64,000 nucleotides of DNA from Callipepla californica brunnescens. Lineage: Eukaryota; Chordata; Aves; Galliformes; Odontophoridae. This document shows positions 5,425-61,226 of this stretch, piece after piece (the stretch's first letter is position 1; each line of letters starts with the position of its first letter). Where the stretch lies: contig JALIRH010000030.1 in assembly GCA_023055505.1 (NCBI GenBank), forward strand, positions 8,924,001 to 8,988,000, given 5' to 3'. The notes beneath the pieces were generated by a model, which was not told the DNA's origin, made no database searches, and was given only the letters and a program-made list of their open reading frames with translations. The position numbers and the translations under genes were made by a program.

Positions 5425-8400
5425 GGATCAATGGGGCCATAGGGATCAATGGGGCCTCAGGAATCAATGGGACCATAGGAATCAATGGGGCCATAGGAAT
5501 CAATGGGGCCATAGGAATCAATGGTGCCATAGGAATCAATGTGGCCATAGAACTACAAGGGGCCATAGGGATCAATGAGGCAATAGGGATCAATGGGGCC
5601 ATAGAACTCAATGTGGTCATAGGGATCGATGGGGCCCTAGGAATCAATGGGGACATGGGAATCAATGGGGCCATAGTCATCAATGTGGCCATAGAACTCA
5701 ATGGGGCCATAGGGATCAATGGGGCCATAGGAATCAATTTGGTCATAGAACTCAATGGGGCCATAGGGATCAATGTGGCCATAGGAATCAATATGGACAT
5801 ATCAATAAATTGCGCTGTAGGGATTAGTAGGGCCATAGTAATCAGTGGGACCATAGGAATCAGTGGGACCATAGGGATCAGTTGGGCCAAAGGAATCAAT
5901 GGGGCCATAAGGATCAATGGGGCCATCGCGATCGATGGGGCCATAGAACTCAATGGGGCCATTGAACACAATGGGACCATAGGGATCAATGGGGCCACAG
6001 GAATCAATGGGACCATTAGAATCAGTGGGGCCATAGAACTCAATGGGGCCATAGGGATCAATGGGGCCACAGGAATCAATGGGACCATTAGAATCAGTGG
6101 GGCCATATAACTCAATGGGGCCATTGGGATCAGTGGGGCCATAGGAATCAATGGGGCCATAGGAATCAATGTGGCCATAGAACTACATGGGGCCATAGGG
6201 ATCAATGGGGCCGTAGGGATCAATGGGGCCATAGAACTCAATGAGGCCATAGGGATAGATGGGGCCATAGGAATCAATAGGGCCATAGGAATCAATGGGG
6301 CCTTAGGGATCAATGGGGCCATAGGGATCAATGGGGCCATAGGGATCGATGGGGCCATAGAACTCCAAGTGTCAATAGGGATCAATGGGACCATAGGAAT
6401 CAATGGGGCCTTAGGAATCAATGTGGCCATAGGAAACAATGGGGCCATAGGGATCAATGTAACCATAGGAATCAATGGGGCCATAGAACTCAAAGGGGCC
6501 ATGGGGATCAATTTGACCCTAGGAATCAATGGGGCCATAGAACTCTGTGGAGCCATAGGGAACAATGGGGCCATAGGGATCAATGGGGCCACAGGAATCA
6601 ATGGGACCATAGGAATCAATGGGGCCATAGGAATCAATGGGGCCATAGGAATCAATGGTGCCATAGGAATCAATGTGGCCGTAGAACTACAAGGGGCCAT
6701 AGGGATCAATGGGGCCATAGGGATCAATGGGGCCATAGAACTCAATGTGGCCATTGGGATCGATGGGGCCCTAGGAATCAGTGGGGCCATAGGAATCAAT
6801 GTGACCTTAGGAATCAATGGGGCCATAGAACTCAAAGATGCTATAGGGATCAATGGGACCATAGGAATCAATGGGGCCATAGGAATCAGTGCGGCCATAG
6901 GGATCAATGGGGCCATAGGAATCAATGGGGACACAACGATCAATGGGACCATAGGAATCAATGTGACCGTAGGAAACAATGGGGCCATAGAACGCAATGT
7001 GGCCATAGAGATCAATGGGACCATAGGAATCAATGGGGCCAACGGAATCAATGGGGCCATAGGAATCAATAGGGCCATAGAACTCAATGGTGCCCTAGGG
7101 ATCAATGGGGCCATAGGGATCAATGGGGCTATAGGGATCAATGGTGCCATAGAACTCAATGGGGCCTTAGAGATCAATGGGGCCATAGGGATCAAATGGG
7201 CCATAGAACTCAATGGGGCCTTAGAACTCAATTGGGCCATAGGGATCAAAGGGGCCATAGGGATCAATGGGGCTATAGGGATCAATAAGGCCATAGGAAT
7301 CAATGGGGCCATAGAACTCAATGGTGCCATAGGGATCAATGGAGCCATAGAACTCAATGGGGCCTTAGGGACTAATGAGGCCATAGGAATCAATGGGGCC
7401 ATAGGGATCAATGATGCTATAGGGATCAATGGGCTATAGGAATCAATGGAGCCATAGAAAATCAATCGGGCCATAGGGATCAATGGGGCCATAGGGATCA
7501 ATGGGACCATAGCAATCAATGGGGCCATAGGGATCAATGGGACCATAGGAATCACAGGGGCCATAGGGATCAGTGGGGCCATAGGGATCAATGGGGCCAC
7601 AAGAATCAATGGGGCCTCAGGAATCAATGGGGTCATACGAATCAATGGGGCCATAAGGATCAATGGGGCCATAGGGATCAATGGGTTCATAGGGAACAAT
7701 GGGGCATAGGTATCAATGGGGCCATAGGAATCAATATGGACATAGCAATAAATGGCGCTGTAGGGATTAGTGGGGCCATAGTAATCAGTGGGGCCATAAG
7801 AATCAGTGGGACCATAGGGATCAGTTGGGCCAAAGGAATCAATGGGGCCATAGGGATCAATGGGACCATAGGAATCAAAGGGGCCATATGGATCAATGGC
7901 AACATAGGATTCAATGGGGCCATAGGAATCAGTGGGGCCATAGAACTCAAAGGGGCCATGGGGATCAATTTGACCCTAGGAATCAATGGGGCCATAGAAC
8001 TCTGTGGAGCCATAGGGAACAATGGGGCCATAGGGAACAATGGGGCAATAGGAATCAATGGGCACTTAGGTATCAATGGGGCCATAGAACACAATGGGAG
8101 CATAGGAATCAACGGGGCCATAGGAATCAATGGGGCCATAGGGATAAAAGGGGCCATATGGATCAATGGGGCCATAGGGATCCATGGGGCCACAGGAATC
8201 AATGGGACCATAGGAATCAATGGTGCCATAGGAATCAATGTGGCCATAGAACTACAAGGGGCCATAGGGATCAATTGGGCCATAGGGATCAATGGGGCCA
8301 TAGAACTGAATGTGGCCATAGGGATCGATGGGGCCCTAGGAATCAGTGGGGCCATAGGAATCAATGTGACCATAGGAATCAATGGGGCCATAGAACTCAA

Positions 8401-11400
8401 AGATGCCATAGGGATCAATGGGACCATAGGAATCAATGGGGCCATAGGAATCAGTGGGGCCATAGGGATCAATGGGGCCATAGGAATCAATGGGGACACA
8501 ACGATCAATGGGACCATAAGAATCAATGTGACCATAGGAAACAATGGGGCCATAGAACACAATGTGGCCATAGAGATCAATGGGACCATAGGAATCAATG
8601 GGGCCAACGGAATCAATGGGGCCATAGGAATCAATAGGGCCATAGAACTCAATGGTGCCATAGGGATCAATGGGGCCATAGTGATCAAATGGGCCATGGA
8701 ACTCAATGGGGCATTAGAACTCAATTGGGCCATAGGGATCAATGGGACCATAGGGATCAATGGAGCCATAGAACTCAATGGGGCCTTAGGGACTAATGGG
8801 GCCATAGGAATCAATGGGGCCATAGGGATCAATGATGCTATAGGGATCAATGGGGCCATAGGAATCAATGGAGCCATAGAAAATCAATCGGGCCATAGGG
8901 ATCAATGGGGCCATAAGGATCAATGGGACCATAGCAATCAATGGGGCCATAGGGATCAATGGGGCCTCAGGAATCAATGGGACCATAGGAATCAATGGGG
9001 CCATAGGAATCAATGGGGCCATAGGAATCAATGGTGCCATAGGAATCAATGTGGCCATAGAACTACAAGGGGCCATAGAGATCAATGAGGCAATAGGGAT
9101 CAATGGGGCCATAGAACTCAATGTGGCCATAGGGATCGATGGGGCCCTAGGAATCAATGGGGCAATAGGAATCAATGGGGCCATAGGAATCAATGGGGCC
9201 ATAGGAATCAATGGGGACATGGGAATCAATGGGGCCATAGTCATCAATGGGGCCATAGAACTCAATGGGGCCATAGGGATCAATGGGGCCATAGGGATCA
9301 ATGGGGCCATAGGAATCAATAGGGCCATAGGGATCAATGGGGCCATAGTAATCAATATGGACATATCAATAAATGGCGCTGTAGGGATTAGTGGGGCCAT
9401 AGTAATCAGTGGGGCCATAGGAATCAGTGGGAACATAGGGATCAGTTGGGCCAAAGGAATCAATGGGGCCATAAGGATCAATGGGGCCATAGGGATCAGT
9501 GGGTCCATAGGAATCAATGGGGCCATAGGAATCAATGGGGCCATAGGGTTCAATGGGTCCTTAGGGATCAATGGGGCCATAAGGATAAATGGGGCCATAG
9601 GGATCAAAGGGGCCATAGGGATCAATGGGGCCACAGGAATCAATGGGACCATTAGAATCAGTGGGGCCATAGAACTCAATGGGGCCATAGGGATCAGTGG
9701 GGCCATAGGAATCAATGGGGCCATAGGAATCAATGTGGCCATAGAACTACATGGGGCCATAGGGATCAATGGGGCCGTAGGTATCAATGGGGCCATAGAA
9801 CTCAATGTGGCCATAGGGATAGATGGGGCCATAGGAATCAATGGGGCCATAGGAATCAATGGGGCCTTAGGGATCAATGGGGCAATAGGGATCAATGGGG
9901 CCATAGGGATCGATGGGGCCATAGAACTCCAAGTGTCCATAGGGATCAATGTAACCATAGGAATCAATGGGGCCATAGAACTCAAAGGGGCCATGGGGAT
10001 CAATTTCACCCTAGGAATCAATGGGGCCACAGAACTCAGTGGAGCCATAGGGAATAATGGGGCCTTAGGGAACAATGGGGCAATAGGAATCAATGGGCAC
10101 TTAGGGATCAATGGGGCCATAGAACACAATGGGAGCATAGGAATCAACGGGGCCATAGGAATCAATGGGGCCATAGGGATAAAAGGGGCCATATGGATAA
10201 ATGGAGCCATAGGGATCAATGGGGCCACAGGAATCAATGGGACCATAGGAATCAATGGGGCCATAGGAATCAATGGGGCCATAGGAATCAATGGTGCCAT
10301 AGGAATCAATGTGGCCATAGAACTACAAGGGCCATAGGGATCAATGGGGCCATAGGGATCAATGGGGCCATAAAACTCAATGTGGCCATAGGGATCGATG
10401 GGGCCCTAGGAATCAGTGGGGCCATAGGAATCAATGTGAACATAGGAATCAATGGGGCCATAGAACTCAAAGATGCCATAGGGATCAATGGGACCATAGG
10501 AATCAATGGGGCCATAGGAATCAGTGGGGCCATAGGGATCAATGGGGCCATAGGAATCAATGGGGACACAACGATCAATGGGACCATAGGAATCAAAGTG
10601 ACCATAGGAAACAATGGGGTCAAAGAACGCAATGTGGCCATAGAATTCAATGGGACCATAGGAATCAATGGGGCCAACGGAATCAATGGGGCCATAGGAA
10701 TCAATAGGGCCATAGAACTCAATGGTGCCATAGGGATCAATGGGGCCATAGGGATCAATGGGGCTATAGGGATCAATGGTGCCATAGAACTCAATGGGGC
10801 CTTAGAGATCAATGGGGCCATAGGGATCAAATGGGCCATAGAACTCAATGGAGCCTTAGAACTCAATTGGGCCATAGGGATCAATGGGGCCATAGGGATC
10901 AATGGGGCTATAGGGATCAATAAGGCCATAGGAATTAATGGGGCCATAGAACTCAATGGTGCCATCGGGATCAATGGAGCCATAGAACTCAATGGGGCCT
11001 TAGGGACTAATGGGGCCATAGGAATCAATGGGGCCATTGGGATCAATGATGCTATAGGGATCAATGGGGCCATAGGAATCAATGGAGCCATAGAAAATCA
11101 ATCGGGCCATAGGGATCAATGGGGCCATAAGGATCAATGGGACCATAGCAATCAATGGGGCCATAGAGATCAATGGGACCATAGGAATCACTGGGGCCAT
11201 AGGGATCAGTGGGGCCATAGGGATCAATGGGGCCACAGGAATCAATGGGGCCTCAGGAATCAATGGGGTCATACGTAACAATGGGGCCATAAGGATCAAT
11301 GGGGCCATAGGGATCAATGGGTTCATAGGGAACAATGGGGCATAGGTATCAATGGGGCCATAGGAATCAATATGGACATAGCAATAAATGGCGCTGTAGG

Positions 11401-12604: not shown

Positions 12605-15600
12605 GGATCAATGGGGCCATAGGGATCAATGGGGCCTCAGGAATCAATGGGACCATAGGAATCAATGGGGCCATAGGAATCAATGGGGCCATAGGAATCA
12701 ATGGTGCCATAGGAATCAATGTGGCCATAGAACTACAAGGGGCCATAGGGATCAATGAGGCAATAGGGATCAATGGGGCCATAGAACTCAATGTGGTCAT
12801 AGGGATCGATGGGGCCCTAGGAATCAATGGGGACATGGGAATCAATGGGGCCATAGTCATCAATGTGGCCATAGAACTCAATGGGGCCATAGGGATCAAT
12901 GGGGCCATAGGAATCAATTTGGTCATAGAACTCAATGGGGCCATAGGGATCAATGTGGCCATAGGAATCAATATGGACATATCAATAAATTGCGCTGTAG
13001 GGATTAGTAGGGCCATAGTAATCAGTGGGACCATAGGAATCAGTGGGACCATAGGGATCAGTTGGGCCAAAGGAATCAATGGGGCCATAAGGATCAATGG
13101 GGCCATCGCGATCGATGGGGCCATAGAACTCAATGGGGCCATTGAACACAATGGGACCATAGGGATCAATGGGGCCACAGGAATCAATGGGACCATTAGA
13201 ATCAGTGGGGCCATAGAACTCAATGGGGCCATAGGGATCAATGGGGCCACAGGAATCAATGGGACCATTAGAATCAGTGGGGCCATATAACTCAATGGGG
13301 CCATTGGGATCAGTGGGGCCATAGGAATCAATGGGGCCATAGGAATCAATGTGGCCATAGAACTACATGGGGCCATAGGGATCAATGGGGCCGTAGGGAT
13401 CAATGGGGCCATAGAACTCAATGAGGCCATAGGGATAGATGGGGCCATAGGAATCAATAGGGCCATAGGAATCAATGGGGCCTTAGGGATCAATGGGGCC
13501 ATAGGGATCAATGGGGCCATAGGGATCGATGGGGCCATAGAACTCCAAGTGTCAATAGGGATCAATGGGACCATAGGAATCAATGGGGCCTTAGGAATCA
13601 ATGTGGCCATAGGAAACAATGGGGCCATAGGGATCAATGTAACCATAGGAATCAATGGGGCCATAGAACTCAAAGGGGCCATGGGGATCAATTTGACCCT
13701 AGGAATCAATGGGGCCATAGAACTCTGTGGAGCCATAGGGAACAATGGGGCCATAGGGATCAATGGGGCCACAGGAATCAATGGGACCATAGGAATCAAT
13801 GGGGCCATAGGAATCAATGGGGCCATAGGAATCAATGGTGCCATAGGAATCAATGTGGCCGTAGAACTACAAGGGGCCATAGGGATCAATGGGGCCATAG
13901 GGATCAATGGGGCCATAGAACTCAATGTGGCCATTGGGATCGATGGGGCCCTAGGAATCAGTGGGGCCATAGGAATCAATGTGACCTTAGGAATCAATGG
14001 GGCCATAGAACTCAAAGATGCTATAGGGATCAATGGGACCATAGGAATCAATGGGGCCATAGGAATCAGTGCGGCCATAGGGATCAATGGGGCCATAGGA
14101 ATCAATGGGGACACAACGATCAATGGGACCATAGGAATCAATGTGACCGTAGGAAACAATGGGGCCATAGAACGCAATGTGGCCATAGAGATCAATGGGA
14201 CCATAGGAATCAATGGGGCCAACGGAATCAATGGGGCCATAGGAATCAATAGGGCCATAGAACTCAATGGTGCCCTAGGGATCAATGGGGCCATAGGGAT
14301 CAATGGGGCTATAGGGATCAATGGTGCCATAGAACTCAATGGGGCCTTAGAGATCAATGGGGCCATAGGGATCAAATGGGCCATAGAACTCAATGGGGCC
14401 TTAGAACTCAATTGGGCCATAGGGATCAAAGGGGCCATAGGGATCAATGGGGCTATAGGGATCAATAAGGCCATAGGAATCAATGGGGCCATAGAACTCA
14501 ATGGTGCCATAGGGATCAATGGAGCCATAGAACTCAATGGGGCCTTAGGGACTAATGAGGCCATAGGAATCAATGGGGCCATAGGGATCAATGATGCTAT
14601 AGGGATCAATGGGCTATAGGAATCAATGGAGCCATAGAAAATCAATCGGGCCATAGGGATCAATGGGGCCATAGGGATCAATGGGACCATAGCAATCAAT
14701 GGGGCCATAGGGATCAATGGGACCATAGGAATCACAGGGGCCATAGGGATCAGTGGGGCCATAGGGATCAATGGGGCCACAAGAATCAATGGGGCCTCAG
14801 GAATCAATGGGGTCATACGAATCAATGGGGCCATAAGGATCAATGGGGCCATAGGGATCAATGGGTTCATAGGGAACAATGGGGCATAGGTATCAATGGG
14901 GCCATAGGAATCAATATGGACATAGCAATAAATGGCGCTGTAGGGATTAGTGGGGCCATAGTAATCAGTGGGGCCATAAGAATCAGTGGGACCATAGGGA
15001 TCAGTTGGGCCAAAGGAATCAATGGGGCCATAGGGATCAATGGGACCATAGGAATCAAAGGGGCCATATGGATCAATGGCAACATAGGATTCAATGGGGC
15101 CATAGGAATCAGTGGGGCCATAGAACTCAAAGGGGCCATGGGGATCAATTTGACCCTAGGAATCAATGGGGCCATAGAACTCTGTGGAGCCATAGGGAAC
15201 AATGGGGCCATAGGGAACAATGGGGCAATAGGAATCAATGGGCACTTAGGTATCAATGGGGCCATAGAACACAATGGGAGCATAGGAATCAACGGGGCCA
15301 TAGGAATCAATGGGGCCATAGGGATAAAAGGGGCCATATGGATCAATGGGGCCATAGGGATCCATGGGGCCACAGGAATCAATGGGACCATAGGAATCAA
15401 TGGTGCCATAGGAATCAATGTGGCCATAGAACTACAAGGGGCCATAGGGATCAATTGGGCCATAGGGATCAATGGGGCCATAGAACTGAATGTGGCCATA
15501 GGGATCGATGGGGCCCTAGGAATCAGTGGGGCCATAGGAATCAATGTGACCATAGGAATCAATGGGGCCATAGAACTCAAAGATGCCATAGGGATCAATG

Positions 15601-18600
15601 GGACCATAGGAATCAATGGGGCCATAGGAATCAGTGGGGCCATAGGGATCAATGGGGCCATAGGAATCAATGGGGACACAACGATCAATGGGACCATAAG
15701 AATCAATGTGACCATAGGAAACAATGGGGCCATAGAACACAATGTGGCCATAGAGATCAATGGGACCATAGGAATCAATGGGGCCAACGGAATCAATGGG
15801 GCCATAGGAATCAATAGGGCCATAGAACTCAATGGTGCCATAGGGATCAATGGGGCCATAGTGATCAAATGGGCCATGGAACTCAATGGGGCATTAGAAC
15901 TCAATTGGGCCATAGGGATCAATGGGACCATAGGGATCAATGGAGCCATAGAACTCAATGGGGCCTTAGGGACTAATGGGGCCATAGGAATCAATGGGGC
16001 CATAGGGATCAATGATGCTATAGGGATCAATGGGGCCATAGGAATCAATGGAGCCATAGAAAATCAATCGGGCCATAGGGATCAATGGGGCCATAAGGAT
16101 CAATGGGACCATAGCAATCAATGGGGCCATAGGGATCAATGGGGCCTCAGGAATCAATGGGACCATAGGAATCAATGGGGCCATAGGAATCAATGGGGCC
16201 ATAGGAATCAATGGTGCCATAGGAATCAATGTGGCCATAGAACTACAAGGGGCCATAGAGATCAATGAGGCAATAGGGATCAATGGGGCCATAGAACTCA
16301 ATGTGGCCATAGGGATCGATGGGGCCCTAGGAATCAATGGGGCAATAGGAATCAATGGGGCCATAGGAATCAATGGGGCCATAGGAATCAATGGGGACAT
16401 GGGAATCAATGGGGCCATAGTCATCAATGGGGCCATAGAACTCAATGGGGCCATAGGGATCAATGGGGCCATAGGGATCAATGGGGCCATAGGAATCAAT
16501 AGGGCCATAGGGATCAATGGGGCCATAGTAATCAATATGGACATATCAATAAATGGCGCTGTAGGGATTAGTGGGGCCATAGTAATCAGTGGGGCCATAG
16601 GAATCAGTGGGAACATAGGGATCAGTTGGGCCAAAGGAATCAATGGGGCCATAAGGATCAATGGGGCCATAGGGATCAGTGGGTCCATAGGAATCAATGG
16701 GGCCATAGGAATCAATGGGGCCATAGGGTTCAATGGGTCCTTAGGGATCAATGGGGCCATAAGGATAAATGGGGCCATAGGGATCAAAGGGGCCATAGGG
16801 ATCAATGGGGCCACAGGAATCAATGGGACCATTAGAATCAGTGGGGCCATAGAACTCAATGGGGCCATAGGGATCAGTGGGGCCATAGGAATCAATGGGG
16901 CCATAGGAATCAATGTGGCCATAGAACTACATGGGGCCATAGGGATCAATGGGGCCGTAGGTATCAATGGGGCCATAGAACTCAATGTGGCCATAGGGAT
17001 AGATGGGGCCATAGGAATCAATGGGGCCATAGGAATCAATGGGGCCTTAGGGATCAATGGGGCAATAGGGATCAATGGGGCCATAGGGATCGATGGGGCC
17101 ATAGAACTCCAAGTGTCCATAGGGATCAATGTAACCATAGGAATCAATGGGGCCATAGAACTCAAAGGGGCCATGGGGATCAATTTCACCCTAGGAATCA
17201 ATGGGGCCACAGAACTCAGTGGAGCCATAGGGAATAATGGGGCCTTAGGGAACAATGGGGCAATAGGAATCAATGGGCACTTAGGGATCAATGGGGCCAT
17301 AGAACACAATGGGAGCATAGGAATCAACGGGGCCATAGGAATCAATGGGGCCATAGGGATAAAAGGGGCCATATGGATAAATGGAGCCATAGGGATCAAT
17401 GGGGCCACAGGAATCAATGGGACCATAGGAATCAATGGGGCCATAGGAATCAATGGGGCCATAGGAATCAATGGTGCCATAGGAATCAATGTGGCCATAG
17501 AACTACAAGGGCCATAGGGATCAATGGGGCCATAGGGATCAATGGGGCCATAAAACTCAATGTGGCCATAGGGATCGATGGGGCCCTAGGAATCAGTGGG
17601 GCCATAGGAATCAATGTGAACATAGGAATCAATGGGGCCATAGAACTCAAAGATGCCATAGGGATCAATGGGACCATAGGAATCAATGGGGCCATAGGAA
17701 TCAGTGGGGCCATAGGGATCAATGGGGCCATAGGAATCAATGGGGACACAACGATCAATGGGACCATAGGAATCAAAGTGACCATAGGAAACAATGGGGT
17801 CAAAGAACGCAATGTGGCCATAGAATTCAATGGGACCATAGGAATCAATGGGGCCAACGGAATCAATGGGGCCATAGGAATCAATAGGGCCATAGAACTC
17901 AATGGTGCCATAGGGATCAATGGGGCCATAGGGATCAATGGGGCTATAGGGATCAATGGTGCCATAGAACTCAATGGGGCCTTAGAGATCAATGGGGCCA
18001 TAGGGATCAAATGGGCCATAGAACTCAATGGAGCCTTAGAACTCAATTGGGCCATAGGGATCAATGGGGCCATAGGGATCAATGGGGCTATAGGGATCAA
18101 TAAGGCCATAGGAATTAATGGGGCCATAGAACTCAATGGTGCCATCGGGATCAATGGAGCCATAGAACTCAATGGGGCCTTAGGGACTAATGGGGCCATA
18201 GGAATCAATGGGGCCATTGGGATCAATGATGCTATAGGGATCAATGGGGCCATAGGAATCAATGGAGCCATAGAAAATCAATCGGGCCATAGGGATCAAT
18301 GGGGCCATAAGGATCAATGGGACCATAGCAATCAATGGGGCCATAGAGATCAATGGGACCATAGGAATCACTGGGGCCATAGGGATCAGTGGGGCCATAG
18401 GGATCAATGGGGCCACAGGAATCAATGGGGCCTCAGGAATCAATGGGGTCATACGTAACAATGGGGCCATAAGGATCAATGGGGCCATAGGGATCAATGG
18501 GTTCATAGGGAACAATGGGGCATAGGTATCAATGGGGCCATAGGAATCAATATGGACATAGCAATAAATGGCGCTGTAGGGATTAGTGGGGCCATAGTAA

Positions 18601-22264: not shown

Positions 22265-22512
22265 TGTCAGGGGTTTGTGGGCCGGTTCGGCCCGGCCCCG
22301 CAACAACCGAGGAAGGAGACCCACAGGCCCACACCCCGGACAGGGGGAAGGGGGAAAGGGAAAAAAAAAAAAAAAAGGAAATAAGCCCCAAAACAAAACA
22401 GCGGCAACGATCTGAGGGGGAAATGCTAATTTACTAAATAAGACATCAGGAAGTAAATAACACAATATAATGCAAAACAATTTGGAATTAAGCCCAATGA
22501 ATCAAACAAAGC

Positions 22513-22559
<47 letters not shown>

Positions 22560-22819
22560 CCCCATAAACCGAAGGCCTTACGCTAACGCTGAAGGCGGAC
22601 GGCAGCGAGCACCCACTCCTAAGTGATCCTAGAGGAAAGAGAGAGAACGTCACGTGACCGCAGAGGGTTTTTATCTGTTCCCTCTGAGCGGAAAACACGT
22701 GAAAAAAAAAACAAAGCATTGCAAAGTCCAATGGGGAATGTAGTTCTCCCTGACTCCCAATGCACTACATGATGCCTTGATGTGGAATACCAGTACCAAA
22801 AAATCACAAAACCACGACA
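22265..22819 (-). repeat. ERV-A 3' LTR
   Basis: 555 bp, opening TGTCGTGG in element sense and closing CCTGACA. In element sense it holds an E-box CACGTG near 22695, a second CACGTG near 22651 that is lost in the other LTR, a TATA-like GATAAAAACC around 22668-22677, a (CT)20 tract (plus-strand GA at 22517-22557) and an A/T homopolymer near its end. A possible variant poly(A) signal AGTAAA lies at 22430-22435. The promoter and polyadenylation calls are by motif only. Confidence 0.92.
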
Positions 22820-22929: not shown

Positions 22930-25900
22930 TTACTGAGGGCGGTCTCCAGACATCAAATTCCCTTGTGGTATACATTGAACATCCCCATTCTTTTGCATCA
23001 CCCACCAGGTAGACCCAGGTCCCTGAGCAAAGACAGTTCCACGGAGAGGTTTGCCCTTTCCAGAAGCTGGAAGTACCCAAACTGCTTTGCCCAACATGTT
23101 CTTTACGTGTACTACAGGGACCTTATCTCCCTCTACAGTAGGCAGAGAGCTGGATTGGGCAGGACCATTGCGATTGATGGATCCTCGGGTGTTGACCAAC
23201 CAGGTGGCTTCTGACAAATTTTTTTCCCATGTTCCACCACCCATTGCTTTCAACATTGTTTTTAACAATCCATTGTACCTTTCAATTTTACCAGAAGCTG
23301 GTGCGTGATAGGGGATATGATAAATCCACTCAATGCCATGATCTTTGGCCCAAGTATCTACAAGAGAATTTTTAAAATGACTTCCATTATCAGACTCAAT
23401 TCTTTCTGGAGTACCATGTCGCCACAGGACTTGTTTCTCCAGACCTAGAATGGTGTTTCGGGCGGTAGCATGGGGTACTGCATATGTTTCAAGCCACCCA
23501 GTGGTCGCCTCCACCATGGTGAGCACATAACGCTTACCACTGCGAGACCGTGGCAAGGTGATATAATCAACCTGCCACGCCTCCCCATATTTATATTTTT
23601 GCCATCGCCCTTCCTCCCAAAGAGGTTTCATCCTCTTGGCTTGTTTAATTGCGGCGCATGTATCACAGTCATTGATCACCTGTGCGATGGCATCCATAGT
23701 TGAGTCCACCCCTCGGTCTCTAGCCCACTTATAGGTCGCGTCCCTTCCTTGATGGCCCGAGGTCTCATGGGCCCACCGAGCTAGAAATAATTCACTCTTA
23801 TGTTGCCAGTCCAAGTCTACTTGAGTCACCTTAACTTTGGCAGCTTGATCTACCTGGTGGTTGTTTTGCTGTTCTTCAGTTGCCCGGCTCTTAGGAACAT
23901 GAGCATCTACATGGCACACCTTTACAACCATGTTCTTTATTCGGGCAGCAATATCCTTCCACAGTTCAGCGGCCCAAATAGGTTTACCCTTCCGTTGCCA
24001 ACCATTTTGTTCCCACTGCTGTAACCACCCCCACAAAGCATTTGCCACCATCCATGAGTCAGTATAAAGCACTGGCCACCTCTCACGTTCAGCAATATTT
24101 AAGGCTAATTGGACAGCCTTTACCTCTGCAAATTGACTTGATTCTCCTTCTCCTTCAGTGGCCTCTGCAACTTGTTGCATGGGACTCCACACAGCAGATT
24201 TCCATTTGCGGTGCTTTCCCACAAAGCGACACGATCCATCTGTGAACAGAGCGTATCTCTTTTCATCTTCCGTTAGTTCATTATATGGTGGGGCTTCTTT
24301 GGCACGTGACACCTCCTCTGCTGGTGTTGTTCCAAACTTTTTACCTTCAGGCCAGTCCATGATCACCTCCAGGATTCCTGGACGGTTGAGGTTCCCCATC
24401 CGAGCTCGCTGTGTAATCAGCGCAATCCACGTACTCCAAGTGGCATCAGTAGCATGATGGGTAGAGGGAACTGTTCCTTTAAACATCCAGTTCAGTACTG
24501 GCAGTCGAGGTGCCAGAAGGAGCTGCGTTTCGGTACCGATTACTTCGGAAGCAGCTCGAACCCCCTCATACGCGGCTAAGATCTCCTTCTCAGTTGGAGT
24601 GTAGCGCTCCTCAGACCCCCTGTATGCACGACTCCAGAATCCAAGGGGTTGGCCTCGGGTCTCTCCAGAAGCTCTTTGCCACAGACTCCAAGTGGGACCT
24701 TCCTTTCCAGCAGCAGTGTAGAGGATGTTCTTTACATCCTGTCCCGTCCGCACTGGCCCCAGGGCCACGGCACGGGCTATCTCCTGCTTAATTTGCTCAA
24801 AAGCCTGCTGCTGCTCAGGGCCCCATACAAAATCATTCTTCTTCCGCATCACCTGATAAAGGGGGCTCACAATGAGGCTGTAGTTTGGAACATGTAGTCT
24901 CCAAAATCCCAGTACACCCAGAAAAGCTTGGGTCTCTGTCTTACTGGTGGGTGGAGACATGGCAGTAATTTTGTCAATCATATCTGTTGGGATGTGACGA
25001 CGTCCATCTTGCCACTTTATGCCTAGGAACTGAATTTCTTGTGCAGGCCCTTTTACTTTGCTTCGCTTAATAGCAAAGCCAGCTCGCAGGAGGATCTGTA
25101 TTATTGTCTCTCCTTTCTTAAAAACTTCCTCTGCTGTATTGCCCCATACAACAATATCATCGATGTACTGCATATGCTCAGGAGCGCCGCCCTGTTCCAA
25201 TGCAGTCTGGATCAACACATGGCAAATGGTTGGGCTGTGCTTCCACCCCTGGGGCAAACGGTTCCAGGTGTACTGAACGCCCCTCCAGGTGAAGGCAAAC
25301 TGTGGCCTGCATTCTGTGGCCAAGGGAATTGAAAAGAAGGCGTTAGCAATGTCAATGGTGGCATACCACTTGGCTGCTTTTGACTCCAGTTCATACTGGA
25401 GTTGAAGCATGTCCGGCACAGCAGCACTCAGTGGAGGTGTGACTTCATTCAGGCCACGGTAATCTACCGTCAACCTCCATTCTTCATTGGCTTTACGCAC
25501 CGGCCATATGGGGCTGTTAAACGGGGAGTGAGTTTTGCTGATCACTCCCTGGCTCTCTAGCTGACGAATCAGATTATGAATAGGGAGCAAGGAATCCCTG
25601 TTGGTGCGGTACTGCCGTCTGTGCACGGTTTTCGTAGCAATTGGTACTTGTTGCTCCTCCACTTGTAGCAACCCCACAACAGATGGATCTTCTGACAGGC
25701 CAGGTAAAACAGATAGTTGCTTAATGCTATCTGTGTCCACAGTAGCTATTCCAAAAGCCCATCGATACCCCTTGGGATCCTTAAAGTGCCCCCTTCTGAG
25801 ATAGTCTATACCAAGTATGCATGGGGCCCCCTGTCCAGTCACTATAGGATGCTTCTGCCAGTCTTTACCCGTGAGGCTTATTTCTGCCTCCAGCACAGAC

Positions 25901-26100
25901 AATTCCTGAAAGCCCCCAGTCACTCCAGAGATATGAATCAATTCTGCCCCTTTATAACTTGAAGGCATTAGAGTACATTGTGCACCAGTATCCACCAGTG
26001 CCTCATATTTCTGTGGGTTTGATGTGCCAGGCCACCGAATCCACACAGTCCAATACACTCTATTATCCCTCTCCCTCCTCTGGCTGAGGGCAGGGCCCCT
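22930..26100 (-). CDS. ERV-A pol: protease-RT-RNase H-integrase
   Basis: Retroviral Pol, 1,056 codons from the codon after the gag UAG to a TAA at 22930-22932. Residue numbers here count from the GTG at 26058. Protease: LVDTGA with catalytic Asp23, then ILGIDYL near 81. Reverse transcriptase: TIDIANAF with Asp236, LPQG at 268, YIDD at 298-301. RNase H: TDGS with Asp607, Glu645, TDSW with Asp667, and Asp737. Integrase: His764, His769, Cys798 and Cys801 zinc site, then Asp831, Asp890 and Glu926 (35 residues between the last two). No ATG precedes the protease active site; the first in-frame Met codon is residue 31. The frame is continuous with gag, so expression by UAG readthrough as a Gag-Pol fusion is the simplest reading. 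All catalytic residues are present. No dUTPase domain was recognised. No internal stops. Confidence 0.93.
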   Translation of the reverse strand, partial: RGPALSQRRERDNRVYWTVWIRWPGTSNPQKYEALVDTGAQCTLMPSSYKGAELIHISGVTGGFQELSVLEAEISLTGKDWQKHPIVTGQGAPCILGIDYLRRGHFKDPKGYRWAFGIATVDTDSIKQLSVLPGLSEDPSVVGLLQVEEQQVPIATKTVHRRQYRTNRDSLLPIHNLIRQLESQGVISKTHSPFNSPIWPVRKANEEWRLTVDYRGLNEVTPPLSAAVPDMLQLQYELESKAAKWYATIDIANAFFSIPLATECRPQFAFTWRGVQYTWNRLPQGWKHSPTICHVLIQTALEQGGAPEHMQYIDDIVVWGNTAEEVFKKGETIIQILLRAGFAIKRSKVKGPAQEIQFLGIKWQDGRRHIPTDMIDKITAMSPPTSKTETQAFLGVLGFWRLHVPNYSLIVSPLYQVMRKKNDFVWGPEQQQAFEQIKQEIARAVALGPVRTGQDVKNILYTAAGKEGPTWSLWQRASGETRGQPLGFWSRAYRGSEERYTPTEKEILAAYEGVRAASEVIGTETQLLLAPRLPVLNWMFKGTVPSTHHATDATWSTWIALITQRARMGNLNRPGILEVIMDWPEGKKFGTTPAEEVSRAKEAPPYNELTEDEKRYALFTDGSCRFVGKHRKWKSAVWSPMQQVAEATEGEGESSQFAEVKAVQLALNIAERERWPVLYTDSWMVANALWGWLQQWEQNGWQRKGKPIWAAELWKDIAARIKNMVVKVCHVDAHVPKSRATEEQQNNHQVDQAAKVKVTQVDLDWQHKSELFLARWAHETSGHQGRDATYKWARDRGVDSTMDAIAQVINDCDTCAAIKQAKRMKPLWEEGRWQKYKYGEAWQVDYITLPRSRSGKRYVLTMVEATTGWLETYAVPHATARNTILGLEKQVLWRHGTPERIESDNGSHFKNSLVDTWAKDHGIEWIYHIPYHAPASGKIERYNGLLKTMLKAMGGGTWEKNLSEATWLVNTRGSINRNGPAQSSSLPTVEGDKVPVVHVKNMLGKAVWVLPASGKGKPLRGTVFAQGPGSTWWVMQKNGDVQCIPQGNLMSGDRPQ

Positions 26101-26103
26101 CTA
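26053..26103 (-). promoter_or_regulatory. ERV-A gag UAG readthrough site with hairpin
   Basis: The gag stop TAG (26101-26103) is in frame with pol; 42 nt (14 sense codons) separate it from the GTG at 26058. Starting five bases after the stop, CCCT and CCCTC can pair with AGGG and GAGGG downstream. This gives a 5-bp inner stem with an 8-nt loop and a 4-bp outer stem across a small internal loop. A structured G/C- and purine-rich stretch after UAG is the arrangement gammaretroviruses use for about 5-10% readthrough. The same cassette is in ERV-B. The hairpin is predicted by eye; a pseudoknot was not resolved. Confidence 0.7.
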
Positions 26104-27858
26104 TTCGTTACCTGTAGTGACGGGAAAAATTTCGCTGGTAGTTGGTCTGTGTTGTAATTCTCTCACCCGTGCTCGCAGTGCAGGGGTGGGTTTTTGATGC
26201 CATTCCTTCATATCTTCTCCATTTGCACGTAAGTAACTCCACAAAGCCGCGCGCGACATGAAGTTAGTAAAGTTAGTGTTGTCATTTGCTCGAGCAGGAC
26301 AGCGTTTGCTTCTGATAGCTGCAACCGATTCAACCCTATCAATCAGTTGGGATAATTTTCCCAGTATATCTTCAATTTGTCCTTCTAACTTTGATATGGC
26401 TGAAATGGATGTGTATGGCGGCAGAAATTTTTGTTTGAAGTTTTGAAGTGTAAGAATTAGTTCAAAAACTGGGGGTTTTCTGTCTTGGTCCTCATATCTG
26501 TTGAACGTTGTCACTAGTGTACCGGCGTACCTTTCTGGTGCTGACTTTGAAAGCTTCTGACATATTTCGGGTGTACTCCTTACTTTCTCCGGATCATGGT
26601 CCCGATCGTCAGGATCAAAGGTGGGATCATACAGCATTTCCGCCACAGCTGTTTCTCTCAAATACTGGATGCCTTCCTCAATAGTTTTCCATCTTTTCAC
26701 TTTAGGTGCCAGGTCACTCTTGTAGGGATATCTTTCCCTCACAGCTACTAGCATTCGTTGCCAGAGGCTGGCGATTCCATCCATATACCTGCTGATTCCT
26801 CTGTCGACAGCTGGATCTCGGGCAATGTTTCCTAGTTGGCGAGCTTCGTTACTATCAAGGGACACACTGTTGTCCCCGTTGTCCCAGCACCGAAGCAACC
26901 AAGTGACAATACTCTCATCCGGACGTCGAACAAACTCCTTTCTTGAGCCTTGGATCTCAGACATTTTCATGGGCCGACGAAACGTCGTAACTTTAACTTT
27001 CTCTTCACCTTCATCATCACTTTCTTCTACATGTCTCTCACTTTTCTTTGTTGCCTTTCTCGATGGTGGTGGGGTTGTGGCCACCCCCTCACCTATATCT
27101 TCCTCTTCTTTCGGCACCTCTTCTTTGCGTTCTAGGCGCGAGGACACACGTTTCCATTTCTTGCCTTCCACAGGGGCAACTGACTTTGATACTGGTGCTT
27201 CCTTTGGCTGGTCAAGTGTGACCGGGAGGTTTTCCTCTTTGGTTTGGGCCTCAGTTTGGACACTCTCTCTCTTCATAATAGTATATAAACCTCGGTAAGC
27301 ATAAGCCAAGCCCCAAATAGGCTGTTCCACCTCAGATCTTTCTGAGCCGCAACACCCTTTACTCAGATACAGGCCTAGCTCCTCAGGATCCTGCAATTGT
27401 TCAGGAGAAAAATCCCATGACACCGGGTGTCCCCATGCTTCTAATTTCTTTCCTAAAACTCTCCACTCTCCCTGCCATTCAACATTCTCTGTTTCTGGGA
27501 GAAGCTTCCTGCACATGATGTAAAGTGCTACTACATGCAGGAGGACTAATATCCCAATTATTAACAAAATCCCTAAGCTGTGATCTTGAAAATTCATAAA
27601 AAACTGAGAGGGGAATCTGGATACCCATTCAAACATCACATGGTTCGTTAACATGCTATCGTTTGTTCCATTAGCTGGGGTGCCCTGGTATCTGGCAGGT
27701 GCCTCTATCATTGCTTTTAATTTATCATATAGGGACCAGAACCAATGGAACAGAATGGCAAACTTGACCAAGTTCCAGTACGTTTTGAGCATTAAGAGGG
27801 AAAAAGCAGTGAAGTACAATCCCTGTAAGGGCAGTTTTAACAGAAACAGAAAAGACAT
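26101..27858 (-). CDS. ERV-A gag with membrane-type N-terminus
   Basis: 585-codon Gag, ATG at 27858 to TAG at 26101. Identified by position between the primer site and pol and by homology to the ERV-B gag, not by a named domain hit. Residues about 3-43 are strongly hydrophobic; 44-94 form a polar stretch with an N-glycosylation sequon NGT at 63; 95-116 form a second hydrophobic segment followed by CRKL. Residues 235-295 are highly charged (KR- and E-rich) with a PPP near 263. A helical capsid-like region (about 298-470, with TWLLRCWDNG at 319) follows, then a predicted coiled segment near 495-520. There is no Gly at position 2, so no myristoylation signal, and no CCHC zinc knuckle. Intact, with no stops or frameshifts. 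An N-terminal membrane hairpin is unusual for Gag. Confidence 0.85.
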   Translation of the reverse strand: MSFLFLLKLPLQGLYFTAFSLLMLKTYWNLVKFAILFHWFWSLYDKLKAMIEAPARYQGTPANGTNDSMLTNHVMFEWVSRFPSQFFMNFQDHSLGILLIIGILVLLHVVALYIMCRKLLPETENVEWQGEWRVLGKKLEAWGHPVSWDFSPEQLQDPEELGLYLSKGCCGSERSEVEQPIWGLAYAYRGLYTIMKRESVQTEAQTKEENLPVTLDQPKEAPVSKSVAPVEGKKWKRVSSRLERKEEVPKEEEDIGEGVATTPPPSRKATKKSERHVEESDDEGEEKVKVTTFRRPMKMSEIQGSRKEFVRRPDESIVTWLLRCWDNGDNSVSLDSNEARQLGNIARDPAVDRGISRYMDGIASLWQRMLVAVRERYPYKSDLAPKVKRWKTIEEGIQYLRETAVAEMLYDPTFDPDDRDHDPEKVRSTPEICQKLSKSAPERYAGTLVTTFNRYEDQDRKPPVFELILTLQNFKQKFLPPYTSISAISKLEGQIEDILGKLSQLIDRVESVAAIRSKRCPARANDNTNFTNFMSRAALWSYLRANGEDMKEWHQKPTPALRARVRELQHRPTTSEIFPVTTGNE

Positions 27859-28064: not shown

Positions 28065-28082
28065 GCCCCACGTTGGGCGCCA
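28065..28082 (-). promoter_or_regulatory. ERV-A primer binding site, tRNA-Lys1,2 type
   Basis: In element sense TGGCGCCCAACGTGGGGC, 18 nt complementary to the 3' end of vertebrate tRNA-Lys(CUU), the same type used by Mason-Pfizer monkey virus and visna virus. It lies four bases (TTTT) after the 5' LTR. Confidence 0.95.
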
Positions 28083-28086
28083 AAAA

Positions 28087-28333
28087 TGTCCGGGGTTTGT
28101 GGGCCGGTTCGGCCCGGCCCCGCAACAACCGAGGAAGGAGACCCACAGGCCCACACCCCGGACAGGGGGAAGGGGGAAAGGGAAAAAAAAAAAAAAAGGA
28201 AATAAGCCCCAAAACAAAACAGCGGCAACGATCTGAGGGGGAAAAGCTAATTTACTAAATAAGACATCAGGAAGTAAATAACACAATATAATGCAATACA
28301 ATTTGGAATTAAGCCTAATTAATCAAACAAAAC

Positions 28334-28364
<31 letters not shown>

Positions 28365-28630
28365 TGAGTGCCCGATAAACCGAAGGCCTTACGCTATCGC
28401 TGAAGGAGGACGGCAGCGAGCACCCACTCCTAAGTGATCCTAGAGGAAAGAGAGAGAAAGTCCCGTGACCGCAGAGGGTTTTTATCTGTTCCCTCTGAGC
28501 GGAAAACACGTGAAAAAAAAAACAAAGCATTGCAAAGTCCTCTGGGGAATGTAGTTCTCCCTGACTCCCAATGCACTACATGATGCCATGATGTGGAATA
28601 CCAGTACCAAAAAATCACAAAACCACGACA
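28087..28630 (-). repeat. ERV-A 5' LTR
   Basis: 544 bp, TGTCGTGG...CCGGACA in element sense, about 97% identical to the 3' LTR. It is 11 bp shorter, mainly because its GA tract (28338-28364) is 27 rather than 41 nt. It carries the upstream E-box CACGTG near 28506 and the TATA-like GATAAAAACC, while the second E-box of the 3' LTR reads CCCGTG here. As the 5' LTR it would drive transcription leftward on this map. Confidence 0.93.
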
Positions 28631-59399: not shown

Positions 59400-59417
59400 T
59401 GGTGGAGAATGCGGGCA
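59400..59417 (+). promoter_or_regulatory. ERV-B primer binding site, probably tRNA-Ala
   Basis: TGGTGGAGAATGCGGGCA complements the 3' end of a vertebrate tRNA-Ala(AGC)-type sequence (…CATTCTCCACCA) as I recall it; the tRNA match was not checked against a database. It differs from the Lys-type site of ERV-A. The presumed gag ATG (59409-59411) lies within it. Confidence 0.7.
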
Positions 59418-61226
59418 GTCCAGTATTTGTACTCCCCAGTAAAACTGGTGCTGAGTGGACTAACTGTTTTCATGTACCTTGGAGCATGTTGGCGTCTTTT
59501 TAAGCTCCTCATGTTCAGCACCGGAGTCATATATGCATACAGCTGCTTTAGTGTGCTGATGGGGTTACCCCCCTCCTGCCTAAACGCCCTGGTTAATATG
59601 ACAGATTATACGGCATTTGGATTGGTTTACAGGTACTCTTTTCAAGTTTTTACCTATGTTCAAGATGTCAGCCTGGCGACTGTGTTATCCATTTTTCTGC
59701 ATGTACTCTCTGTAACAGTCATTTACATCCTGTGTAGGAAGCTTTCCTCAAAACCAGAGAGTGCTGAATGGCAGGGAAGGTGGGAAAAAATAGGAAAGAA
59801 ATTAGAAGTGTGGGGAACCCCGGTGCTGTGTGATTTTGATCTTGAGCACCTGCGGGATCCTGAGAAATTCAGTGAGTGTTTAGGTCAGGAGTCATGTGAC
59901 TCAGGCAGATCTGAGAAGGAACGGATTGTTTGGGGCTTGGCTTGTGCTTATCAAGCTATAATTGATATTCTGGAGAGAAATGGTTTCCAAACCGAGGTTC
60001 AGAGCAAAAATGAAAACCTTGAGGTTAAACCTGACCAGTCACAGGAAGCACCGGCATCCGTGTTGGTTGCCCCTGTGGAAGGCCAGAAACGGAAACTTGT
60101 GTCTTCTCGGCTAGAACGGAAAGAAGAAGCAGAGAAAAAAAAAGGAAGATCCAGGTGAGGGGCCCTCCTCAGCACCACCACCACCACCTACAAAGGCCAC
60201 TAAGAAAAGTGTGAGACATGGTGAGGACAGTGATAATGAAGAAATCACCATTACCACTATTCGTTGGATGACTGAAATCCAGGGTTCAAGAAAGGAGTTT
60301 GTACAGCGCTCAGATGAACCTACTGTCACCTGGTTGCTGCGGTGTTGGGACAACGGTGCCAGCAGCGTGTCCCTAGATGGCAATGAAGCCCGCCAACTGG
60401 GAAGCATTGCTCGAGACCCAGCTATTGACAGAGGGATTAGTAGATGTTTGAGTGGAGTTGCTACCCTCTTGGAACGAGTGCTAGTAGCTGTAAAGGAGAG
60501 ATTTCCTTACAAAGACGATCTGGAGCCTAAGGTGGAAAGATGGAATACTGTGGAGAAGGGCGTCCAATTTTTGAGAGAAATGGCTGTAGTAGAGATGCTG
60601 TACGATCCTACTTTTGTCCCTAACAATCCCACCAGGACCGTGATCCTGAGGAAGCATGGTGTAAAGCTGATGTATATCGGAAGCTCTCAAAAACAGCACC
60701 AGAAAGGTACGCAAGTACACTGGTAGCAACGTTTAATATACTCGAGGGCCGAAACAGAGGACTCCCTTTTCATGAAGTGGTTACTACACTTCAGAACTTT
60801 GAACAACAACTTCCTCCATCACACGTTTCCATTGCAGCTGTATCAACGGTAGCAGGAGAAGTCAGTGACATAAAGAAGATACTGAAAATGATACTGGAGG
60901 AATTGTCCTTACTGATGAACAGGGATGGACCTGTGTCAGTATCAGAAACACCTGATGAAGATGGGGATGATCCAAAGAATCTGATGGAGAAACTGATCAA
61001 ACTGATAAAAGTCTCAGCCATCAAAGGCAACCGCCTCTCTGCTCGAGCAGATGACAGCAGTAACTTCATGTTGCGTGTGTCCATGTGGAGCTTCTTATGA
61101 GAAAATGGAGAGGACATGAAGAAGTGGCATAAAAAACCCACCCCTGCACTACGAGCACGTGTGAGAGAATTACAGCAGAGATCAGCCACCAATGAAATTG
61201 CTCCGGTCACCACAGGTAACCAATAG
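59409..61226 (+). pseudogene. ERV-B gag, broken
   Basis: Homologue of the ERV-A gag. It starts at the ATG at 59409 inside the primer site. Hydrophobic segments span about residues 10-55 and 88-108, an NMT sequon sits at residue 63, and CRKL follows the second segment, giving the same layout as ERV-A despite low identity there. A frameshift lies in or near the nine-A run at 60136-60144, a second returns the frame at about 60630-60640, and a TGA at 61098-61100 replaces an Arg codon. The final TAG at 61224-61226 is the same stop used in ERV-A, in frame with pol. No Gly2 and no CCHC knuckle. The capsid-like region keeps TWLLRCWDNG. Confidence 0.88.

What the first reader, a model, noticed from the sequence alone, without database searches (positions are those of the whole stretch)
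27505..27858. Gag begins with a membrane-spanning hairpin and a glycosylation sequon
ERV-A Gag residues about 3-43 and 95-116 are hydrophobic with a polar loop between them holding NGT at residue 63. ERV-B Gag has the same layout with NMT at residue 63 and CRKL after the second segment, although few residues in between match. Neither has Gly2 for myristoylation, and the elements lack env. A Gag that inserts itself in a membrane could replace myristoylation or support intracellular budding. Conserved topology with diverged sequence suggests a selected function.
Basis: partly seen in the sequence, partly recalled or inferred. Interest (0 to 1): 0.75.

Follow-up and report, generated by a model that had tools for sequence, protein, structure and literature searches.

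The report
Bird retroviral Gag with membrane hairpin
The coat protein of a family of virus-like elements in a probable bird genome begins with segments predicted to thread through a membrane around a probably sugar-bearing loop, a layout kept in distant bird relatives although the sequence itself has changed greatly.

Summary
ERV-A Gag (26101-27858, minus) has hydrophobic residues 3-44 and 95-117, a loop with N63-G-T, no Gly2 and no env; ERV-B has the same layout with N63-M-T. It is not chance: among 17 representative Gags (under 60% N-terminal identity; Galliformes, ducks, a raptor, ibis, manakin, unnamed assemblies) TM2 scores as membrane-inserting in 17 and the TM1 region in 16, against 0 of 142 and 0 of 156 control windows. 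The loop sequon is present in 15 of 17 (6.6 expected, P=1e-5). Lys/Arg number 18 before and 53 after TM2, which puts the loop in the lumen and the capsid in the cytosol. ERV-A copies show purifying selection (pN/pS 0.15). Part of the A/B divergence looks mosaic. Best reading: an env-less, class III (spuma-related) avian lineage anchors Gag in ER-type membranes by an uncleaved, N-glycosylated multi-pass module instead of myristoylation. Insertion and sugar are predictions; budding is inferred. Parallels exist (IAP Gag, MLV glycoGag, Ty1 Gag); ten searches of an open-licence library showed no description of this one. Against: some sublineages carry stops or frameshifts inside the hairpin.

The parts
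27727..27852 (-). ERV-A Gag hydrophobic stretch 1 (residues 3-44; one or two membrane passes)
   Evidence: one long helix 3-55 in the model, pLDDT about 70-79 over residues 1-50
27664..27672 (-). sequon N63-G-T in the loop
   Evidence: present in 30 of 30 fetched ERV-A copies
27655..27663 (-). second sequon N66-D-S
27508..27576 (-). ERV-A Gag membrane segment 2 (residues 95-117)
   Evidence: delta-G -3.75; helix 94-118; -3.75 to -2.49 across 30 copies
27502..27513 (-). CRKL after segment 2 (residues 116-119), basic flank predicted cytosolic
   Evidence: K/R bias
27463..27477 (-). WQGEW motif opening the conserved domain after the membrane module
   Evidence: alignment
26428..26976 (-). capsid-like region, residues 295-477
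26101..27858 (-). ERV-A gag, 585 aa, intact
22930..26058 (-). ERV-A pol ORF (protease weak, RT, RNase H, integrase), 1042 aa
   Evidence: Pfam; closest PDB sequence Pr125Pol (foamy virus by recall)
28087..28630 (-). ERV-A 5' LTR, TGT...ACA
   Evidence: 15 mismatches in 544 aligned positions to the 3' LTR
22265..22819 (-). ERV-A 3' LTR, TGT...ACA
28065..28082 (-). primer-binding site TGGCGCCCAACGTGGGGC (tRNA-Lys type by recall)
   Evidence: read
59409..60158 (+). ERV-B gag, first open part, 249 aa (frame broken after it)
59442..59510 (+). ERV-B membrane segment 1 (residues 12-34)
   Evidence: delta-G -0.75
59595..59603 (+). ERV-B sequon N63-M-T
   Evidence: 30 of 30 fetched B copies
59673..59738 (+). 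ERV-B membrane segment 2 (residues 89-110)
   Evidence: delta-G -0.70

Best explanation
In this env-less class III (spuma-related) avian element family, Gag carries at its N-terminus an uncleaved multi-pass membrane anchor of about 118 residues. The first hydrophobic stretch acts as a signal-anchor that brings the nascent Gag to the ER; a loop of about 50 residues lies in the lumen and is N-glycosylated at one conserved site; segment 2 crosses back so that the MA-like and capsid domains stay in the cytosol. The anchor does the job that myristate plus a basic patch does in other retroviruses, so capsids assemble on, and probably bud into, ER-type membranes in an intracellular life cycle. Shown here: sequence, conservation, sequon conservation, charge bias, purifying selection. 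Inferred: actual insertion, glycosylation, site of assembly, budding.
For: At delta-G 1.2 or below: TM2 in 17 of 17 representatives (0 of 142 downstream 50-aa windows) and the TM1 region in 16 of 17 (0 of 156 length-matched downstream windows). Sequon in 15 of 17 loops against 6.6 expected, P 1.1e-5; aligned column N 15/17 (D in the other two) and T/S 17/17, while upstream of the WQGxW motif few other columns are conserved (for ERV-A the T that the aligner puts in that column is not its own sequon's T). K/R 18 before and 53 after TM2; 12 up, 1 down, 4 ties. 30 of 30 fetched A copies and 30 of 30 fetched B copies keep segments and sequon, though 13 of the B copies carry a stop at residue 109. 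pN/pS 0.15 for residues 1-118 of A against 0.16 for all of Gag, no amino-acid change in residues 1-48; loop 0.14 in A and 0.13 in B. MuERV-L particles accumulate in the ER (PMC5930517, passage).
Against: No experiment. Structure models are poor (mean pLDDT 60 and 56). TM1 of ERV-A is marginal, and the number of segments before the loop at a cut-off of 2 kcal/mol differs: one in 9, two in 6 and three in 2 (P0045, P0112) of the 17. Lys46 and Lys48 of A, on the loop side, go against the positive-inside rule. Sequon missing in 2 of 17 (P0020, P0043). All 8 copies that I fetched after a P0003 search have a broken hairpin: 4 share a stop after residue 43, 4 share a frameshift at about residue 52-55; they are 8 of 96 listed matches, taken mostly from the top rows, whose short open frames favour broken N-termini. 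Shared breaks show that truncated sublineages have multiplied (in trans or by duplication). In B, residues 1-10 and TM2 show pN/pS about 1. Fetched copies are the best-scoring ones, hence biased to intact.
Confidence: 0.66

Rival explanations
1. The N-terminal stretch is a cleaved or optional ER-targeting signal; Gag is not a stable multi-pass protein, and TM2 is the only true anchor or a stop-transfer.
For: TM1 pieces are weak in ERV-A; four copies could only start after TM1 yet keep loop, TM2 and a 564-566-codon open frame; IAP Gag is brought to the ER by SRP without lumenal translocation in vitro (PMC3945221 passage).
Against: TM1 region is hydrophobic in 16 of 17 representatives; residues 1-48 of A have no amino-acid change among 30 copies.
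Confidence: 0.12
2. A glycoGag-like accessory function: the membrane-inserted glycosylated Gag, or a fraction of it, counters a host factor such as SERINC5 rather than building particles.
For: MLV glycoGag is an N-glycosylated Gag form, described as a type II membrane protein in the ER, that lowers SERINC5 (PMC12530543 passages); variability at B residues 1-10 (pN/pS 0.94).
Against: Here the module starts the only Gag frame at an AUG, with a stop nine codons upstream; a second Gag start without the module was not looked for experimentally. An intracellular env-less element has less need to defend an entry step (inference).
Confidence: 0.08
3. Relict: hydrophobic N-terminus inherited from an env-bearing ancestor, kept only because copies are young.
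For: Sublineages with broken hairpins multiplied.
Against: Same layout in lineages with little N-terminal identity, sequon column conserved, low pN/pS in the loop.
Confidence: 0.06

Closest known systems
Intracisternal A-particle (IAP) Gag, mouse
   Same: Gag brought to the ER membrane by the signal recognition particle (PMC3945221 passage; the primary paper is not held); ER-located particles (recalled).
   Different: Class II element (recalled), whereas Pol here is nearest Pr125Pol, by recall foamy virus. Whether IAP Gag has several passes and a lumenal sequon was not compared.
MLV glycoGag
   Same: A membrane-inserted, N-glycosylated form of Gag (PMC12530543 passages).
   Different: CUG-started extension beside normal Gag, mostly described as type II with the C-terminal part extracellular; here the main AUG-started Gag, capsid predicted cytosolic.
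MuERV-L / mammalian ERV-L Gag
   Same: Class III, env-less, no myristoylation signal (Table 2 of PMC8278194, passage); particles accumulate in the ER (PMC5930517 passage).
   Different: The terms hydrophobic, transmembrane and signal do not occur in the main text of PMC5930517. Mammalian Gag sequences were not compared here.
Foamy virus Env leader peptide (Elp)
   Same: About 120-130 residues, membrane-spanning, works with a Gag that lacks a myristoylation signal (PMC7828637 passages).
   Different: Part of Env, type II, released by furin; here the module is fused to Gag and there is no env.
sORF2 of Drosophila MDG1 retrotransposons
   Same: Small membrane protein of env-less elements with a basic patch after the membrane segment (PMC11952523 passages).
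   Different: Separate ORF upstream of gag, one membrane segment, N-myristoylation motif in many.
Yeast Ty1 Gag
   Same: Gag enters the ER co-translationally and its stability depends on N-glycosylation machinery (PMC3945221 passages).
   Different: Ty1 Gag goes back to the cytoplasm; no such hairpin named in the passages; unrelated lineage.

Membership tests
Class III (spuma-related) endogenous retroviruses | Pol nearest to foamy virus Pol | tested here: met
   Best PDB sequence matches are Pr125Pol entries (8.6e-54, 185.8 bits; next other molecule names 162.9 and 157.5 bits); that Pr125Pol is foamy virus is recalled; not a phylogeny
Class III (spuma-related) endogenous retroviruses | LTR termini TGT...ACA | tested here: met
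   Both ERV-A LTRs; rule quoted from a passage of PMC8278194
Class III (spuma-related) endogenous retroviruses | No Gag myristoylation Gly2 and no Cys-His box | tested here: met
   Residue 2 Ser/Arg; no CX2CX4HX4C pattern in Gag-A
ERV-L proper (mammalian type) | dUTPase after integrase | tested here: not met
   No dUTPase family in the Pfam scan of pol; about 110 bp between pol stop and LTR
ERV-L proper (mammalian type) | tRNA-Leu primer-binding site | tested here: not met
   Site reads TGGCGCCCAACGTGGGGC, by recall a tRNA-Lys type; the Leu rule is recalled too
MLV glycoGag | Upstream non-AUG start giving an extended Gag beside normal Gag | tested here: not met
   The module starts at the AUG of the only Gag ORF; a stop lies nine codons upstream
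IAP Gag | Class II betaretrovirus-like pol | tested here: not met
   Pol nearest Pr125Pol; class of IAP recalled
sORF2 / FAST-like proteins | Short separate ORF, single membrane pass, N-myristoylation motif | tested here: not met
   Module is fused to Gag, two or more hydrophobic segments, no Gly2
Retroviral capsid fold | CA N- and C-terminal domain fold | tested here: inconclusive

The most novel reading that the evidence does not exclude
Gag and envelope glycoprotein in one chain: the particle buds with its own Gag loops, each N-glycosylated, as its only surface protein, so an env-less avian lineage keeps self-enveloped particles that can move between membranes or neighbouring cells without Env.
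Probability: 0.12. Interest if true: 0.88.

Novelty: new variant of a known kind. Interest (0 to 1): 0.62.

Why it matters
A review of foamy virus assembly says that the Gag of env-less LTR retrotransposons has only capsid and nucleocapsid domains and that elements which acquired env gained an N-terminal module for membrane targeting or Env interaction, while allowing that membrane-associated assembly may have evolved earlier in some (PMC7828637, passages). This lineage lacks env and yet keeps an N-terminal membrane module with a conserved sugar site in several bird orders. If insertion is confirmed, it is another way for a retroviral Gag to reach membranes, beside myristate, basic patches and Env-dependence. 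It would help to explain how a bird element with many near-identical copies (75 scored, the window's own included, the others at 96-98%; a lower bound) completes its cycle. It gives a single-residue, directly testable prediction (N63).

Tried and rejected
Pfam, a PDB profile search and Foldseek against viral and PDB libraries gave no significant family for this Gag. dN/dS between A and B over the N-terminus is not usable: dS 1.54 with a doubtful alignment. One search was discarded: minus-strand copies were read on the wrong strand; one search repeats it correctly. Rejected: chance hydrophobicity and sequon by loop composition. Before the 17-representative count I dropped P0092 (unrelated N-terminus, TM2 score +5.64), P0033 and P0070 (start inside the module) and added A, B and P0013; N-complete meant a start Met and the WQG-type motif at residues 85-230, giving 37 of the 147 sequences then held. 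The first control was not length-matched for the TM1 region; one search is. Homologue lists: all 53 rows, the best 120 of 610, the best 120 of 180; the names shown are birds except two rows labelled Klebsiella. Hits from the third search were looked at for N-termini only by the motif rule, which passed one (P0146, truncated). Mammalian and other non-avian class III Gags were not compared.

Full report
Setting. The window lies at G000:C30:8924001-8988000 of an unnamed 1.085-Gb genome. It is mostly an 18-bp tandem satellite carrying two proviruses: ERV-A on the minus strand, LTRs 28087-28630 and 22265-22819, and ERV-B on the plus strand from about 59 kb, running off the window. The homologues of Gag that carry a name are birds, two odd labels apart, so the host is very probably a bird; this is inference.

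The observation. The stated details were verified: hydrophobic residues 3-44 and 95-117, sequon at 63 in both elements (A has a second at 66), CRKL after segment 2, no Gly2. The model of Gag-A has one helix 3-55 and one 94-118, with modest confidence; a model of a manakin Gag has helices 2-29, 35-67 and 119-143 among others, with low confidence.

More than chance. I took Gags with a complete N-terminus from the 147 sequences then held, 37 of them, and reduced them to 17 representatives under 60% N-terminal identity. TM2 is at or below +1.2 kcal/mol in 17 of 17 and the TM1 region in 16 of 17 (at or below zero in 13 and 14). Downstream in the same proteins 0 of 142 fifty-residue windows and 0 of 156 windows matched in length to the TM1 region reach +1.2. 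The loop has a sequon in 15 of 17; shuffling each loop predicts 6.6, P 1.1e-5. In the alignment the Asn column is N in 15 and D in 2, the Thr column T in 16 and S in 1, with the residue between free to vary. For ERV-A the aligner places a later Thr in that column, although its own N63-G-T is intact. Conserved ends and a free middle are what selection for a glycosylation site leaves (inference).

Topology. Lys and Arg in the 15 residues before TM2 total 18, after it 53; 12 of 17 representatives have more after, 1 fewer, 4 tie. By the positive-inside rule the capsid side is cytosolic and the loop lumenal, which agrees with a used sequon. How many passes precede the loop is open: at a cut-off of 2 kcal/mol one segment in 9 representatives, two in 6 (ERV-A among them) and three in 2.

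Selection. The 30 ERV-A copies fetched are the best-scoring of 75 scored (58 of the 75 without a stop) of 4823 first-look candidates, so they lean to intact ones. In them residues 1-118 have pN/pS 0.15 and the whole Gag 0.16; residues 1-48 have no amino-acid change; TM2 has 0.96, five of its six variable sites staying hydrophobic. Among 23 distinct ERV-B copies (24 distinct of 30 fetched, L050 left out for its length; 150 scored of 3178 candidates), the loop has 0.13, residues 11-50 0.34, TM2 1.15 and residues 1-10 0.94. An anchor that must be hydrophobic but need not keep its letters would look like this (inference).

Against. Eight further copies reached through a Lagopus Gag query all carry B-type N-termini that are broken: four share a stop after residue 43 and four share a frameshift at about residue 52-55. 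They are 8 of 96 listed matches, chosen mostly from the top rows, whose open frames are short (560-566 codons), so they say little about frequency. Shared breaks mean that such copies multiplied, by trans-mobilisation or duplication; the module is not indispensable for copying in every circumstance. Thirteen of the 30 fetched B copies carry a stop at residue 109. Two of 17 lineages lack the sequon.

Mosaic history. ERV-A residues 1-60 are nearest to P0007 (25/58) and P0024 (22/58), against 12/56 for ERV-B, while its TM2 is nearest to ERV-B (11/23) (ten sequences compared). An element with a P0007-like N-terminus lies just downstream of ERV-B (L069). So part of the striking A/B difference looks like exchange of N-terminal segments between lineages. 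The numbers are small and no tree was made.

Mechanism. The most likely reading is a signal-anchor that brings Gag to the ER during translation, one glycosylated lumenal loop, and a cytosolic capsid assembling on that membrane. Parallels in print: ERV-L and the frog element XtERV-S lack a myristoylation signal (PMC8278194, passages and gag section); MuERV-L particles accumulate in the ER (PMC5930517, one passage); IAP Gag is taken to the ER by SRP and Ty1 Gag enters the ER (PMC3945221, passages); MLV glycoGag (PMC12530543, passages). Insertion, glycosylation and budding are not shown here.

Novelty. Ten searches of an open-licence library returned no paper that I could see describing a membrane-spanning glycosylated Gag in avian class III elements; for most listed papers only title and start of abstract were seen, passages of others, and subscription papers are not held. 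I file it as a new variant of a known kind: ER-inserted Gag is known in principle, the conserved multi-pass, sequon-bearing module of an env-less avian lineage appears not to be.

Noticed in passing
P0036 (Buteo buteo), P0073 (Accipiter gentilis), P0076 (Tyto alba); Predicted USP4 isoforms join the USP4 N-terminus (DUSP and ubiquitin-like domains, about 225 aa) to this Gag just downstream of TM2, without the membrane module. Buteo and Tyto share 206/232 identities in the USP4 part and 385/488 in the Gag part. Possible captured Gag exon kept open in two orders, or a gene-model artefact of an intronic provirus.
   Followed up: partly
L069:1635-2500 (G000:C30:8989335 onward), just beyond the window: A third, internally deleted element of another subfamily (P0007-like N-terminus, coiled-coil-like Gag part, pol start) begins a few hundred bases after the ERV-B 3' LTR.
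   Followed up: partly
L061-L068: Eight B-type copies share one of two breaks inside the hairpin; the four with the shared stop (L061, L062, L067, L068) keep an open frame of 564-566 codons after it and may use a Met in or near the loop, keeping TM2 only.
   Followed up: partly
L035, L036, L042, L049, L051-L059: 13 of 30 fetched ERV-B copies have identical residues 1-130 with a stop at residue 109, all on contigs C60 and C69: probably segmental amplification of a dead copy.
   Followed up: partly
P0126, P0212: Bird-like ERV Gag proteins are filed as Klebsiella pneumoniae hypothetical proteins, probably host DNA in bacterial assemblies.
   Followed up: no
P0187 Taeniopygia guttata; P0166 Hirundo rustica: Other host gene models appear fused to this Gag (macrophage immunometabolism regulator isoform; C2H2 zinc-finger protein).
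   Followed up: no
window 1-22260 and 28640-59000: 18-bp tandem satellite, open in several frames, with longer-period repeats: ORFs 7687-8877 and 14867-16057 recur at 7180-bp spacing.
   Followed up: no
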